From contig NC_013790.1 of NCBI RefSeq assembly GCF_000024185.1, positions 829,501-893,500 on the forward strand: a stretch of DNA of 64,000 bases, given 5' to 3'. Source of the DNA: Methanobrevibacter ruminantium M1. Its GTDB lineage: Archaea; Methanobacteriota; Methanobacteria; Methanobacteriales; Methanobacteriaceae. This document shows, in pieces, positions 1,973 to 7,541 of this stretch; position 1 is the first letter of the stretch, and every line of letters begins with the position of its first letter. The translations under genes were made by a program, and so were the position numbers. The notes below the pieces were generated by a model. That model did not search any database, had not been told where the DNA came from, and saw nothing but the letters and a program-made list of their open reading frames with translations.

Positions 1973-2941
1973 TTAGATTATTGTTGTTGTGAGTGTTGCT
2001 ATTTCTGCTTTGCTCATTTTTGTTGCTTTTGCTATGATGTCTGGTGATACATCTAGTTCGGCTAGGCTTTTTACGATTTCTTCTCTTTCTTCTTCTCTTC
2101 CTTCTTCATAGGTTTGTTTTCGTTCTTCTTTTGTTAGGTATCCTTGGAAGACTTCTTCTTTTCCTTCTGATTGCATGCTTATCACCTTGGCTATTTTGGC
2201 TTTTTCGTTGTCGTTTAGGAGTTCTGTTGCAAGTACGAATTGTATGGATTTGATTTCAATCAACTTTTCCCTGCTTATTCTCCCATCCAACTTATTTGTC
2301 ATCTCAGCTACTCTTTTTAATAACTGTCTCTGCTTTTTCTTTTTTCGAGTCATTAAAGGACTAATTTCAAGATAAACAAAATCCTCCTCTGTAAACTCTT
2401 CCTCTTCATTCTCTATTTTATTATTTGTCCTATTTAAAGCTTTATTATAATCCATATCGGTTAACGATTTGACATGTATAGTAAACCAGTAGTCTCCATA
2501 CTTATTTTCAATTTTATCCCTCTTTATCGGCTCTTTTGAAACAACATAAAGATGTATGTCCTTTTTTTCTTGATGAGCTATGCTGGCCCTATAAAGCCCA
2601 AACCTTAAAATATCCTCTAGCTTTAATCTGCTGCTTTGAAATTCAATAATATAGATTCTCTTCTTATAAACTCTTATAATAATATCAGAATGCAATTCCC
2701 TAAAAAAAGCATTTATAATTTCACTATCCACAAACTCTTCAAATATTGCTCCCTTTTCCAATATCTCCAAAAACCCATTGGGATTTTTCTTAAATGAGGT
2801 TTTAAGGATCTTATCATAGGGCTTATGGACTTTTATCCTCTTGATTTTCTCTTCAAAAGAGTTGAATCCTTTATGGTTTAATATACTGTAGTCTAAAATT
2901 TTTTCACCTCCTTTATCTTTATTCATTGGGGCGATTTTCAT
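1973..2941 (-). CDS. Rpn-family PD-(D/E)XK nuclease (recombination-promoting nuclease/putative transposase)
   Basis: The N-terminal half carries the family core: SDIIIRVYKKRIYIIEFQSS gives the conserved D and the ExQ signature (EFQ) of the Rpn branch of PD-(D/E)XK nucleases. The C-terminus (LAELDVSPDIIAKATKMSK) is the helical tail usual for the family, preceded by a charged stretch rich in E, K and R. Rpn nucleases cleave DNA and raise RecA-independent recombination in E. coli; here the role is inferred. Candidate starts are ATG at 2941 and 2926, neither with a ribosome binding site. A perfect GGAGGTG lies inside the frame at 2911-2905, eight bases (counted from GGAG) before an in-frame ATT at 2899, which may be the real start. 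Confidence 0.8.
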   Translation of the reverse strand: MKIAPMNKDKGGEKILDYSILNHKGFNSFEEKIKRIKVHKPYDKILKTSFKKNPNGFLEILEKGAIFEEFVDSEIINAFFRELHSDIIIRVYKKRIYIIEFQSSRLKLEDILRFGLYRASIAHQEKKDIHLYVVSKEPIKRDKIENKYGDYWFTIHVKSLTDMDYNKALNRTNNKIENEEEEFTEEDFVYLEISPLMTRKKKKQRQLLKRVAEMTNKLDGRISREKLIEIKSIQFVLATELLNDNEKAKIAKVISMQSEGKEEVFQGYLTKEERKQTYEEGREEEREEIVKSLAELDVSPDIIAKATKMSKAEIATLTTTII

Positions 2942-3573
2942 TTGTAAATAATTATTTGGTTCTCATTATATTTAAATCTTTTTCTAAACCATTATTTTTA
3001 AATAAAACTCATTTATTGACATCAAAATTGCTTTTAAGTTGTTAAAAAATTGATTTCAAAATGTGAAATTGTTTTAATTTCGTAACAATATTGACTTGAA
3101 AATGTGAAATTGTTTTGATTTCGTAACAATATTGATGTGAAATTGTTAAAGTTATAGGTGCGGTTAAAACCATTTTATTCAGTTAAATAAGGGTGTTTTT
3201 TTAAAATATCTATTTAAATCATTTAAATGTTGAAAAAATTAGTTTTAATATCTGTATTTTTGTTGATATGGTTTATTAGAATTTTTAAAAAAATAGAAAA
3301 AATAGTTTAAATCATGAAAATATGATAATTTGGATTAAATGCTGTCTAATTTGAAAACACTGAAATTGATTTAAGTTTGATAATCTTTAAATGAATTTTT
3401 AATCTTAATTTCATTGGATTTTTTAGCTTTTCACTTCGTTAATATTACTTTAGGCAACTGAAAAGATTTAATAATGTATTAGAACCATAAAATATAATTA
3501 GATGTCTATTCCCCATTCTTTTTTTCTAGAGTATGGTTTAGAATAGATGGGCTTGTGAACTTGAGGTGAGATT
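2942..3573. other. AT-rich gap upstream of the Rpn gene with repeated units
   Basis: No protein gene is seen. Near 3050-3150 there are repeated phrases of the type TGTGAAATTGTTTT..TTTCGTAACAATATTGA. The rest is AT-rich spacer leading to the small ORF at 3574. Confidence 0.6.
3058..3140. repeat. 41-bp tandem repeat, two copies
   Basis: Copies start at 3058 and 3099 (AAAATGTGAAATTGTTTT then TTTCGTAACAATATTGA), 41 bases apart with few changes. A third partial unit follows near 3133 (ATTGATGTGAAATTGTT). The phrase ATTGACTT.AAAATGT.AAATTGTT recurs at about 44201, so this is a dispersed as well as tandem repeat. Confidence 0.75.
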
Positions 3574-3666
3574 ATGGATTTAAAAACAACAGATATAATT
3601 TATATTATTTGCGGTTTGGCCTTATTTATTATAGGAATGTATAAAATCATAACTGGATTATTTTAG
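3574..3666 (+). CDS. 30-residue small membrane protein
   Basis: A 30-codon ORF starts MDLKTTDIIYII and ends IITGLF. GAGGTG lies five bases upstream of the ATG, a textbook Shine-Dalgarno spacing for this genome. Residues about 8-29 form one hydrophobic segment (IIYIICGLALFIIGMYKII) after a short polar start, so it is predicted to be a single-pass membrane protein. It is too short for most gene callers. The downstream 200 bases hold no clear gene before the acetyltransferase. Function unknown. Confidence 0.55.
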   Translation: MDLKTTDIIYIICGLALFIIGMYKIITGLF

Positions 3667-3864
3667 ATTCTTTTTTTTTTTAATGGATTTTTCTTCTCCA
3701 TATCATTAAGGAATCAAAAGATTTTATTATTAAATATGATGGAGAACAATATGCTGTTTAACTAGGAAGAGAACTTTTGCAGGAATTAGGTGCATAATTA
3801 TAGAATATCTCTAATTAGTGATTATTAGGTCTATTTAAACATATGTCTGGCTTTGGAGGATAAG

Positions 3865-4396: not shown

Positions 4397-4505
4397 TATT
4401 CTGTTTTTATTAATATTTCTTATTTTAAAAGCTTATTTGAATTTTAATATTTCTATTTTTAAAAATACTGCTTATCTTTTCTTATTTTATAATTTAAAGA
4501 TGCAA

Positions 4506-4538
4506 GTAAGCACTTACATTCGAAAAACTATTTATATG
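4506..4538 (+). promoter_or_regulatory. Archaeal promoter with adjacent dyad
   Basis: CGAAAAACTATTTATATG (4521-4538) fits a BRE followed by a TATA box. Directly upstream is the small palindrome GTAAGCACTTAC (4506-4517), a possible factor-binding site. Transcription would begin near 4560-4565 and read toward the small ORF at 4688. Confidence 0.55.
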
Positions 4539-4582
4539 TTCTTGAATAAAATAAATATTGTGTTTGTGTTTTATTGAATTGG

Positions 4583-4605
4583 TAGATGGTCATTTTTACC
4601 ATCTA
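4583..4605 (+). other. 8-bp hairpin in the putative leader
   Basis: TAGATGGT (4583-4590) and ACCATCTA (4598-4605) are perfect complements with a 7-nt loop. It lies about 20 bases after the expected transcription start and 80 bases before the small ORF, so it would be at the 5' end of that RNA. Confidence 0.5.
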
Positions 4606-4687
4606 TTGATTCTTAACCATGTATGCCTATATTTTATTTGATTAGATCATATATTGTTTGTTGATTAAATTATTTGGAGGTGAAATG

Positions 4688-4759
4688 ATGCTTTTTTTAG
4701 GAGATATGGGTATGTTTTTTCAAAAATTTGATGATTTTATAGCTGATTTATATTTTTAA
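4688..4759 (+). CDS. 23-residue small protein
   Basis: The ORF encodes MLFLGDMGMFFQKFDDFIAD plus LYF. GGAGGTG (4676-4682) stands at the spacing seen before most starts in this window; an ATG at 4685 is a second possibility but is too close. The peptide is hydrophobic and aromatic with two aspartate pairs, and could be an amphipathic helix. A promoter lies upstream and a perfect 10-bp hairpin lies downstream, so it looks like an independent small transcription unit. I do not recognise a family. Confidence 0.5.
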   Translation: MLFLGDMGMFFQKFDDFIADLYF

Positions 4760-4826
4760 ATGACTTATTAAAAAATTCGCAAAGATTTTTTTGTGTGATT
4801 ATGGGAATTAATTTCCTATTTGATTG

Positions 4827-4853
4827 CCTGTTTAGATTTGAATTCTAAACAGG
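4827..4853 (+). terminator. 10-bp hairpin ending the small-ORF transcript
   Basis: CCTGTTTAGA (4827-4836) and TCTAAACAGG (4844-4853) pair perfectly around a 7-nt loop, followed by AAGTTTTATGCTTTTTTT. It would close the transcript carrying the 23-residue ORF. Confidence 0.55.
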
Positions 4854-4967
4854 AAGTTTTATGCTTTTTTTGACTATTTTTACTAGTTTTTGTACTATTT
4901 TAGAATTATTTTCGATTAATCGTTCGGATAATTCAATTATAATCTTTTTTTAAATTATTATAATCTT

Positions 4968-5741
4968 TTAATTGCTTGTATCCTCGAGGGCTGTCTCTTG
5001 ATTTATCTTCTGTTTATATCCTCTATAAATATTTCCAATTCCACGATATTCCACTGTAAATGCCAAAATATCAGTCAATACTCCTATTATAATGCTTATC
5101 CAACCATAAGAGTGGAAATATCCATTGATAAATACTAAAATAACAACAGCCGCTACAATCTTTGTATAGTCTTCAGCATATTCCTTCCAACCGATTGTTT
5201 CAACTGTTCTTTTGATTCTTTTAAAGTCAAATGCTGCTTTTAGTGTTTCCCCATCTGCTAGTATTGCAAGAGCGATTTCCATAAAGAATATTGTTCCATA
5301 GACAATGAGAAGTCCTAATATGATAAATAGTATGAAGCTGATAGGATCATGCTCAAAAAACAATTCTATGGTCTCGTGAAGATTTAGAATCATCTCTTCC
5401 AATTCAAATTCAGGGAAATTCATTGCTAGGGAAATCAAACCTAAAAGGGAAGCTTGTATGGTCAGATAGAATGTATATACGATGGTTCCTTTCACTCCGA
5501 AATTGAGCAATTCCTTAAGGCTTATCTTAGGCAGACTGGTGCCTCCATTGATTACGTCTTGAGTAACCTTTAATCCATAGCCTAAAATAACTAAAAGGAC
5601 TATCACTGAGGTGGTTTTCATTATTCCACCCACTTTATTTGTTATGCATTCAAATATTAAAAATTGGATGAATACGATTAAAAATAAGGTTTTATTTTCA
5701 GTACAATATCTGACTGAACCTTTAAGCATTTGATTTGGCAT
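4968..5741 (-). CDS. DUF4013-like multi-pass membrane protein
   Basis: A 257-residue integral membrane protein. Hydrophobic segments are visible around residues 18-35, 42-58, 92-107 (LLGLISLAMNF), 135-160 (FILFIILGLLIVYGTIFFME) and 195-235. The ILADGETLKAAFDFKRI segment resembles the DUF4013 family common in Methanobacteriales, where a soluble loop follows the third helix. GGAGAACAAT precedes the ATG. No transport motif is seen and the role is unknown. It is transcribed away from the pyk gene, with a shared AT-rich spacer of about 390 bases between them. Confidence 0.65.
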   Translation of the reverse strand: MPNQMLKGSVRYCTENKTLFLIVFIQFLIFECITNKVGGIMKTTSVIVLLVILGYGLKVTQDVINGGTSLPKISLKELLNFGVKGTIVYTFYLTIQASLLGLISLAMNFPEFELEEMILNLHETIELFFEHDPISFILFIILGLLIVYGTIFFMEIALAILADGETLKAAFDFKRIKRTVETIGWKEYAEDYTKIVAAVVILVFINGYFHSYGWISIIIGVLTDILAFTVEYRGIGNIYRGYKQKINQETALEDTSN

Positions 5742-6134: not shown

Positions 6135-7541
6135 ATGAAGAAGACAAAAATTATAGCTAGTGTAGGTCCTGCATCTGATTCAGTTGAAGTTATGAGTGAT
6201 ATGGTTGAGATGGGGATGGATTGTGCCAGGATCAATCTCTCTCATGCTAATCAAGAGGATATTTTAAAGATAATAGATGTGGTTAATGAGGTGCGTAAGA
6301 TATGCAATGTGCCTTTGGCAATTATGTATGACACAAAAGGGCCTGAGTTTAGGACTTCTGAATTTAAGCATGGAGGTGTGCTGCTTAATGAAGGGGACAC
6401 CATTAAGATGAGCAAGACTTGCATACAAGGTAATAAAGAGGAATTTGGAGTCAATCATAAAGAAGCAATCGACTTTATAAACGTGGGCGACAAGGTTCTA
6501 ATCGACAATGCTCTCTTGGAATTTGAAGTCATTGACAAGAAAGAGGATTATGTGCTATTGAAGGCTTTAGGAGATGGAAAGATTCTAAATCATAAGACCA
6601 TCAATGTCCCTGGTGTTGACTTGAAGCTTGATTTTATAAGTGATGTGGATAAGGAGGACATATCCTTTGCAGCAGGGCATTCCTGTGATTATTTGGCCCT
6701 TTCTTTTGTAAATTCAGGGGAAGATGTAATTGCAGCTCGTAAAATTGTGGAGGACGCCGGAGGAGATGCCCTTATCATTTCAAAGATTGAAAGTCGCATG
6801 GGCCTTATGAATCTTGATGAGATAATTGATGAATCTGACGGAATCATGGTGGCTCGAGGGGACTTGGGGGTTGAGGTACCAATGGAACATTTGCCTATAA
6901 TTCAAAAGGACATCATCAGAAAATGTCGTGAAAAGGGCAAGTTTGCCATTGTTGCAACAGAGATGCTTGCTTCAATGTATGAAAGCCCTAGACCTACCCG
7001 TGCTGAGGTTTCAGATGTTGCAAATGCCGTTTTGGATGGAACCGATTGTGTAATGCTCTCTGGAGAGACAACTATCGGTAAGCATCCGGTCCATGCAGTT
7101 GAAATGATGGATCGTATATGCAATTATGTGGAATCGACCATTGACTATAGTAAGCATACCTTTTACAAGGGAAAGGTGGCTATCAGCGATACAATCGCCA
7201 AGCTTGTCATAGGAGCTAGCGAATATTCAGACATTAAGCTAATAGTCACACCTACTTTGACTGGATTTACAGCCCGCAAAATCAGCAATTTGAGATCAAG
7301 CTCTGCAATTTTAGCTTGCTGTCCATCTAATGACATTGCAAGGAAGCTTGTTTTAAATTTTGGAGTAAAGGCTGTAATAACTGACATTTATGAGAATACT
7401 GATGAAATGATTGATAATGTGGTGGATATTGCTAAAATGGAATTTGATTTAAACAAAGGCGATCTTATAGTGGTCACAGGAGGATTCCCATTAGGTAAGA
7501 CTAGAAATACTAATTCCTTAAGGATATTGGAAATCGATTGA
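6135..7541 (+). CDS. pyk: Pyruvate kinase
   Basis: Transfers phosphate from phosphoenolpyruvate to ADP, giving pyruvate and ATP, in the cytosol. The 468-residue length fits the family. KTKIIASVGPAS and MDCARINLSHA open the barrel, YDTKGPEFR is the loop after beta2, LALSFVNS and ISKIES carry the catalytic lysine, and DGIMVARGDLGVEVP and ATEMLASM with PTRAEVSDVANAVLDG are the classical signature regions. LSGETTIGKHP follows, then the C-terminal domain. GGAG precedes the ATG. A hairpin with six Ts follows the stop, so it appears monocistronic. In a methanogen it works at the lower end of central carbon metabolism. Confidence 0.96.
   Translation: MKKTKIIASVGPASDSVEVMSDMVEMGMDCARINLSHANQEDILKIIDVVNEVRKICNVPLAIMYDTKGPEFRTSEFKHGGVLLNEGDTIKMSKTCIQGNKEEFGVNHKEAIDFINVGDKVLIDNALLEFEVIDKKEDYVLLKALGDGKILNHKTINVPGVDLKLDFISDVDKEDISFAAGHSCDYLALSFVNSGEDVIAARKIVEDAGGDALIISKIESRMGLMNLDEIIDESDGIMVARGDLGVEVPMEHLPIIQKDIIRKCREKGKFAIVATEMLASMYESPRPTRAEVSDVANAVLDGTDCVMLSGETTIGKHPVHAVEMMDRICNYVESTIDYSKHTFYKGKVAISDTIAKLVIGASEYSDIKLIVTPTLTGFTARKISNLRSSSAILACCPSNDIARKLVLNFGVKAVITDIYENTDEMIDNVVDIAKMEFDLNKGDLIVVTGGFPLGKTRNTNSLRILEID

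What the first reader, a model, noticed from the sequence alone, without database searches (positions are those of the whole stretch)
4506..4853. Self-contained small transcript with 23-residue ORF
A canonical BRE/TATA with a palindrome in front, an 8-bp hairpin at the RNA 5' end, a 23-codon ORF with perfect GGAGGTG, and a perfect 10-bp hairpin 70 bases after the stop form a complete unit of about 290 bases. The hydrophobic peptide could be a small membrane-acting or toxin-like protein, or the RNA may be the functional product.
Basis: partly seen in the sequence, partly recalled or inferred. Interest (0 to 1): 0.58.

Follow-up and report, generated by a model that had tools for sequence, protein, structure and literature searches.

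The report
Operator-controlled small-peptide transcript in methanogen
A roughly 300-base stretch of a rumen methanogen's genome looks like a small gene for a 23-24 residue peptide, and its promoter carries a palindromic switch that recurs in many Methanobrevibacter genomes, mostly in front of small exported proteins, tiny peptides and apparent small RNAs, usually in genomes that also hold one particular TetR-type regulator.

Summary
The palindrome (4500-4519) and TATA box form a promoter-operator module present 4 times in this genome (Methanobrevibacter ruminantium M1 by size) and 352 times in 61 of 129 family genomes, with no match for the reversed pattern. An exact scan of 84,980 species genomes found it only in Methanobrevibacter. 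A TetR-family gene co-occurs with it (45 of 61 genomes with sites, 1 of 68 without) and has a site just behind it in 17 of 33 TetR loci. Where an ORF of 60 aa or more follows, 90 of 112 have hydrophobic N-termini (background 6 of 45). Other sites precede structured RNA-like transcripts or very short ORFs with strong ribosome-binding sites (18 of 83 units; 2.4 expected). I read 4481-4871 as one unit of this undescribed regulon: a small mRNA for a 23/24-residue amphipathic acidic peptide, with a 5' hairpin and a terminator-like 3' hairpin. The peptide has no orthologue in the genomes held here, so translation is supported by class only. A functional RNA is the main rival. 'Toxin' has no support. 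Regulator binding and expression are inferred.

The parts
4481..4566 (+). conserved promoter-operator module (the only part with close DNA relatives)
   Evidence: best matches in own genome and relatives cover query 1-88 of 4480-4880
4500..4519 (.). 20-bp operator, arms ATGCAAGT / ACTTACAT with 4-bp spacer
   Evidence: recurrence
4520..4537 (+). BRE-like CGAAA stretch and TATA box
   Evidence: spacing operator to TATA-like start 9 bp in 174 and 11 bp in 19 of 199 sites
4560..4560 (+). transcription start, inferred from the TATA position only (about 4560)
   Evidence: inference; archaeal TATA-to-start distance recalled
4576..4612 (+). 5' hairpin, 15 pairs with a 7-nt loop; perfect 8-bp core 4583-4605
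   Evidence: z -3.4
4676..4682 (+). Shine-Dalgarno GGAGGTG
4685..4759 (+). ORF for a 24-aa peptide (23 aa from ATG 4688), amphipathic, charge -3
4827..4853 (+). perfect 10-bp hairpin, terminator-like
4854..4871 (+). T-rich tail after the hairpin (T4 and T7 runs), likely end of the transcript
   Evidence: inference

Best explanation
The unit is one of four members, in this genome, of a regulon defined by a palindromic operator 9-11 bp in front of the TATA box. A TetR-family protein (here G000:C1:264952-265539, minus strand) most likely binds the operator and controls loading of TBP/TFB. When the promoter is active it makes a small mRNA of about 300 nt with a 5' hairpin, ended at the 3' hairpin and T-run, from which a 23/24-residue amphipathic acidic peptide is translated. 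By analogy with the rest of the regulon, mostly small exported proteins, the peptide probably acts at the cell envelope. Shown by sequence: the module, its recurrence and spacing, its linkage to the TetR gene, the classes of products. Inferred: binding, sign of regulation, transcription, translation, envelope action.
For: Module 4 times in own genome, 13 of 19 genus genomes, 61 of 129 family genomes, reversed-pattern control 0; 26 contigs in one genome each of 84,980 species, all Methanobrevibacter. Fixed spacing to TATA in 199 sites. TetR orthologue in 45 of 61 genomes with sites and 1 of 68 without, and a site on the same strand within about 330 bp behind the TetR match in 17 of 33 TetR loci. 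90 of 112 ORFs of 60 aa or more behind sites have hydrophobic N-termini, background 6 of 45. 18 of 83 units without an ORF of 40 aa or more have a strict SD and an ORF of 5-39 aa, 2.4 expected; some such peptides are conserved between species or duplicated. The window ORF has a full GGAGGTG and is amphipathic.
Against: The peptide itself has no orthologue here. 16 of 61 genomes with sites lack the TetR at E<=1e-20, four of them 99% complete (G086, G088, G094, G125), and G091 has TetR without sites. In G093 and G128 the TetR frame has internal stops although sites persist. Several sister units look non-coding. The co-occurrence test is not corrected for phylogeny. No expression or binding data.
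Confidence: 0.6

Rival explanations
1. The RNA is the functional product: a structured small RNA under the same operator, with the ORF incidental or secondary.
For: Folding z -3.3 to -4. The sister unit behind TetR in M1 and its counterparts in other genomes look non-coding, and tandem RNA-like units occur. The ORF has no orthologue.
Against: A full GGAGGTG at correct spacing before an ATG is unlikely by chance, and strict SD-ORFs are enriched in this class. The window RNA has none of the CCTCC/TCTCC-type stretches that I looked for and saw in several RNA-like units. No Rfam match. 5' hairpins are only weakly enriched in the regulon (21% against 14%).
Confidence: 0.22
2. The promoter is real but the unit is a decayed or nascent member: transcribed or not, neither the peptide nor the RNA has a function.
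For: Only the promoter part is conserved; copy number and products turn over fast between genomes. Neighbours of the DUF4013 gene in its 75% relatives show no such unit.
Against: The strong SD, ORF, two hairpins and T-run are all in order.
Confidence: 0.13
3. A type I toxin-antitoxin style toxic peptide.
Against: No TATA-like site on the minus strand of 4500-5000, no transmembrane-grade stretch, and the promoter belongs to a regulon of mostly exported proteins.
Confidence: 0.03
4. The module is a mobile or junk repeat, not an operator.
For: 0 to 61 copies per genome and some tandem copies.
Against: Similarity is confined to about 85 bp ending behind the TATA region; spacing and orientation to TATA are fixed while arms vary; signal-peptide-like genes follow; a TetR gene co-occurs.
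Confidence: 0.02

Closest known systems
FadR of Sulfolobus acidocaldarius, an archaeal TetR-family regulator (PMC6449355; abstract and found passages seen)
   Same: TetR-family protein in an archaeon, a dyad-symmetric site of 16 bp, few genomic sites (four).
   Different: Controls fatty-acid metabolism genes, acts as a repressor; no small peptides or RNAs in the passages seen. Here the regulon is small exported proteins, peptides and RNA-like units, and binding is untested.
Fatty acid metabolism regulator, PDB 3whb (best solved sequence relative of the M1 TetR, E 5e-9)
   Same: Sequence similarity over residues 10-193 of the M1 regulator.
   Different: Ligand and operator of the archaeal protein are unknown.
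Small proteome of Methanosarcina mazei (PMC11456600; search listing only)
   Same: Methanogens translate many unannotated ORFs of 70 codons or fewer.
   Different: Different order of archaea; no shared operator is known to me.
Phenol-soluble modulins of staphylococci (recalled, no call)
   Same: Short leaderless amphipathic peptides under common control.
   Different: No sequence relation, no exporter sought, no activity known; analogy only.

Membership tests
TetR-family-controlled regulon | regulator with a TetR N-terminal DNA-binding domain | tested here: met
   PF00440 1.8e-9, 37.6 bits against a cut-off of 24; TetR structures in PDB
TetR-family-controlled regulon | palindromic operator at a fixed place in several promoters | tested here: met
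   199 sites, spacing to TATA 9 or 11 bp in 193
TetR-family-controlled regulon | regulator gene co-occurs with and lies near the operator | tested here: met
   45 of 61 against 1 of 68 genomes; 17 of 33 TetR loci; exceptions: 16 genomes
TetR-family-controlled regulon | the regulator binds this operator | not testable with these tools
   needs gel shift or ChIP
Translated small peptide gene | ribosome-binding site before the start codon | tested here: met
   GGAGGTG 2 nt before ATG 4685, 5 nt before ATG 4688
Translated small peptide gene | coding conservation between relatives | tested here: inconclusive
   no orthologue of the window ORF in 60 relatives; other peptides of the class are conserved
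Type I toxin-antitoxin | antisense RNA promoter over the toxin mRNA | tested here: not met
   no TATA-like site on the minus strand of 4500-5000 by simple patterns
Type I toxin-antitoxin | hydrophobic transmembrane peptide | tested here: not met
   best 19-aa mean 0.79
Known structured RNA family | match to an Rfam model | tested here: not met
   none in the window or in 10 loci
Phenol-soluble-modulin-like peptide | short leaderless amphipathic helix | tested here: inconclusive
   moment 0.625, shuffle p 0.011, but helix formation unknown
Phenol-soluble-modulin-like peptide | dedicated exporter and secretion | not tested
   no exporter was sought

The most novel reading that the evidence does not exclude
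Methanobrevibacter carries an undescribed envelope regulon in which one TetR-type switch controls small secreted proteins, leaderless tiny peptides (down to 6-7 codons with strong ribosome-binding sites) and tandem small RNAs with anti-ribosome-binding-site stretches. The peptides may be released as signals or antimicrobials in the gut, and the RNAs may tune translation of the same set; the 24-residue peptide here would be M1's version.
Probability: 0.22. Interest if true: 0.75.

Novelty: new variant of a known kind. Interest (0 to 1): 0.56.

Why it matters
Transcription regulation in rumen and gut methanogens is little mapped, and their surface proteins matter for contact with host and bacteria. 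A 27-base motif that is specific to these organisms turns a set of unannotated small genes and RNAs into one testable regulon with a candidate regulator, and shows where peptides of 6-30 codons escape annotation.

Tried and rejected
Synteny: the DUF4013 neighbour (4968-5741, minus) has 75% relatives in G087 and G110, but I saw no operator, small ORF or hairpin unit in the intergenic stretch beside it there, so the ORF could not be tested by orthology. A 36-bp match at 4756-4791 in many genomes proved, at its M1 copy (1873304), to lie at the start of another coding frame; I treat it as chance AT-rich similarity. A 48-49 aa membrane peptide found in 7 of 19 genus genomes is absent from M1, so the window peptide is not its relative. 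5' hairpins as a general mark of the regulon: weak only (z below -2 in 21% of 197 sites, 14% in a control stretch). A looser operator pattern gave the same four sites in M1, and the palindrome alone added three places (185831, 1624228, 2085053) at about control frequency; I did not inspect those three. Literature: the searches listed no paper on this motif or regulon; only open-licence papers are held. An M1 RNA-seq study with lauric acid exists (PMC5816558; parts 1 and 2 of 4 of the text read); supplements could not be read, so these units could not be looked up.

Limits of the counts: the 199 sites come from the sites counted plus contigs, with G004 (61 sites) over-represented. Its class 'no SD-ORF' (55) still holds evident coding units with weaker ribosome-binding sites, so it is no count of RNAs. 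The 30 loci fetched were inspected but are not in those counts. In one search the length cut-offs of test (60 aa) and background (150 aa) differ.

Full report
What is there. The window lies at C1:829501-893500 of a single-contig genome of 2,937,203 bases, the size published for Methanobrevibacter ruminantium M1 (PMC2812497, passage seen). The 5' hairpin is real but starts about 16 nt inside the inferred RNA and has 15 pairs. The 301-nt RNA folds better than 100 of 100 shuffles (z -3.3).

The promoter is a recurring module. Only about window 4481-4566 has close DNA relatives. The pattern ATGYAAGTAAGYACTTRCATTCGAAAA with up to 3 mismatches is found 4 times in this genome, in 13 of 19 genus genomes and in 61 of 129 family genomes (3 of 17 genera), 352 sites in all, with no match of the reversed pattern (sum). 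An exact scan of one genome for each of 84,980 species gave 26 contigs, all titled Methanobrevibacter. In 199 distinct sites the TATA-like start lies 9 bp (174) or 11 bp (19) behind the operator.

The regulator. Just upstream of the M1 copy at 264,719 (minus) lies a TetR-family gene. Its orthologue (E<=1e-40) is present in 45 of 61 family genomes with sites and in 1 of 68 without (Fisher p 6e-20, phylogeny not corrected). In 17 of 33 TetR loci scanned, a site with up to 5 mismatches lies on the same strand within about 330 bp behind the TetR match. Against this, 16 of 61 genomes with sites have no such TetR at E<=1e-20, four of them 99% complete; six of the 16 are in one genus (g3), where G020 and G112 do have it next to a site. 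In G093 and G128 the TetR frame has internal stops although sites persist. The best solved relative is a fatty-acid metabolism regulator, 3whb, E 5e-9.

What the module drives. Of sites with an ATG-ORF of 60 aa or more within 250 nt, 90 of 112 have a hydrophobic N-terminus, against 6 of 45 ORFs of 150 aa or more in the window. Typical products are small proteins with signal-peptide-like starts. In M1 the other three units are a 78-aa and a 121-aa protein with such starts and the RNA-like transcript behind TetR; neither the two proteins nor the window peptide has a Pfam match. Among 83 units without an ORF of 40 aa or more by the rules, 18 have a strict SD with an ORF of 5-39 aa, where shuffles give 2.4. 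Examples: aromatic-rich peptides of 13-24 aa in L066 and of 23 aa in L148, ORFs of 17-19 aa duplicated in one transcript (L164, L222), a 15-aa peptide nearly identical in two species with 3 base differences, all at third positions, and a 29-aa pair with 13 of 23 differences at third positions. A third pair, of 28 aa, shows no such bias (9, 7 and 11). Other units look like structured RNAs, some in tandem (L185, L170), some with CCTCC- or TCTCC-like stretches that could pair with ribosome-binding sites; none of the loci scanned matches Rfam.

The window unit. It has the fullest ribosome-binding site of the window in front of a 24/23-codon ORF. The peptide is amphipathic (moment 0.625, shuffle p 0.011), with charge -3 and no transmembrane-grade stretch. 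It is best read as a small mRNA of the class just described. The RNA reading stays open, because the ORF has no orthologue here and RNA-like sister units exist.

How it would work (inferred). A TetR dimer on 4500-4519, next to the BRE, controls loading of TFB and TBP; the sign is unknown, because an operator upstream of the BRE could serve activation or repression. The peptide, or the RNA, then acts, most likely at the envelope. The resemblance of the regulator to a FadR and the response of cell-surface genes of M1 to lauric acid (PMC5816558) make a membrane or fatty-acid signal a lead, no more: I identified none of the four units in the part of the table that I read.

Novelty. The searches listed no paper on this motif or regulon. 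TetR-type regulation in archaea is known, so this is a new regulon of a known kind with an unusual set of products, and the finding is one small member of it.

Noticed in passing
window 3574-3666 (+): Another mini-ORF, 30 codons, with a GAGGTG ribosome-binding site and a transmembrane-grade stretch (19-aa mean 2.38).
   Followed up: no
window about 3042-3150: Short direct repeats of the type aatgtgaaattgttttRatttcgtaacaatattga in an AT-rich intergenic stretch (by eye).
   Followed up: no
L103 about 2450-2746 (-); L128-L131, L133, L134, L136: An RNA-like transcript under the same module right behind the TetR gene; its 5' part, often a TAGTGTGA..TCACACTA-type hairpin, is recognisable across several genomes.
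   Followed up: partly
L185 (-) 6570-7300; L170 (-) 3300-3800; L171 350-560: Tandem units of about 240-270 bp, each with its own operator-promoter and a structured RNA ending in a TTCTCCC-like stretch.
   Followed up: partly
L222, L164: ORFs of 17-19 codons, each with a ribosome-binding site, repeated twice in one transcript.
   Followed up: no
L194-L200: A conserved 48-49 aa membrane peptide in 7 of 19 genus genomes, often behind the same module, absent from M1.
   Followed up: partly
G004 (3.1 Mb draft): 61 copies of the module in one genome, against 18 or fewer in the other 128 family genomes searched: a lineage-specific expansion.
   Followed up: partly
G093:C1:1232343-1232918; G128:C71:65051-65617: The TetR gene has internal stops although module sites persist in these genomes.
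   Followed up: no
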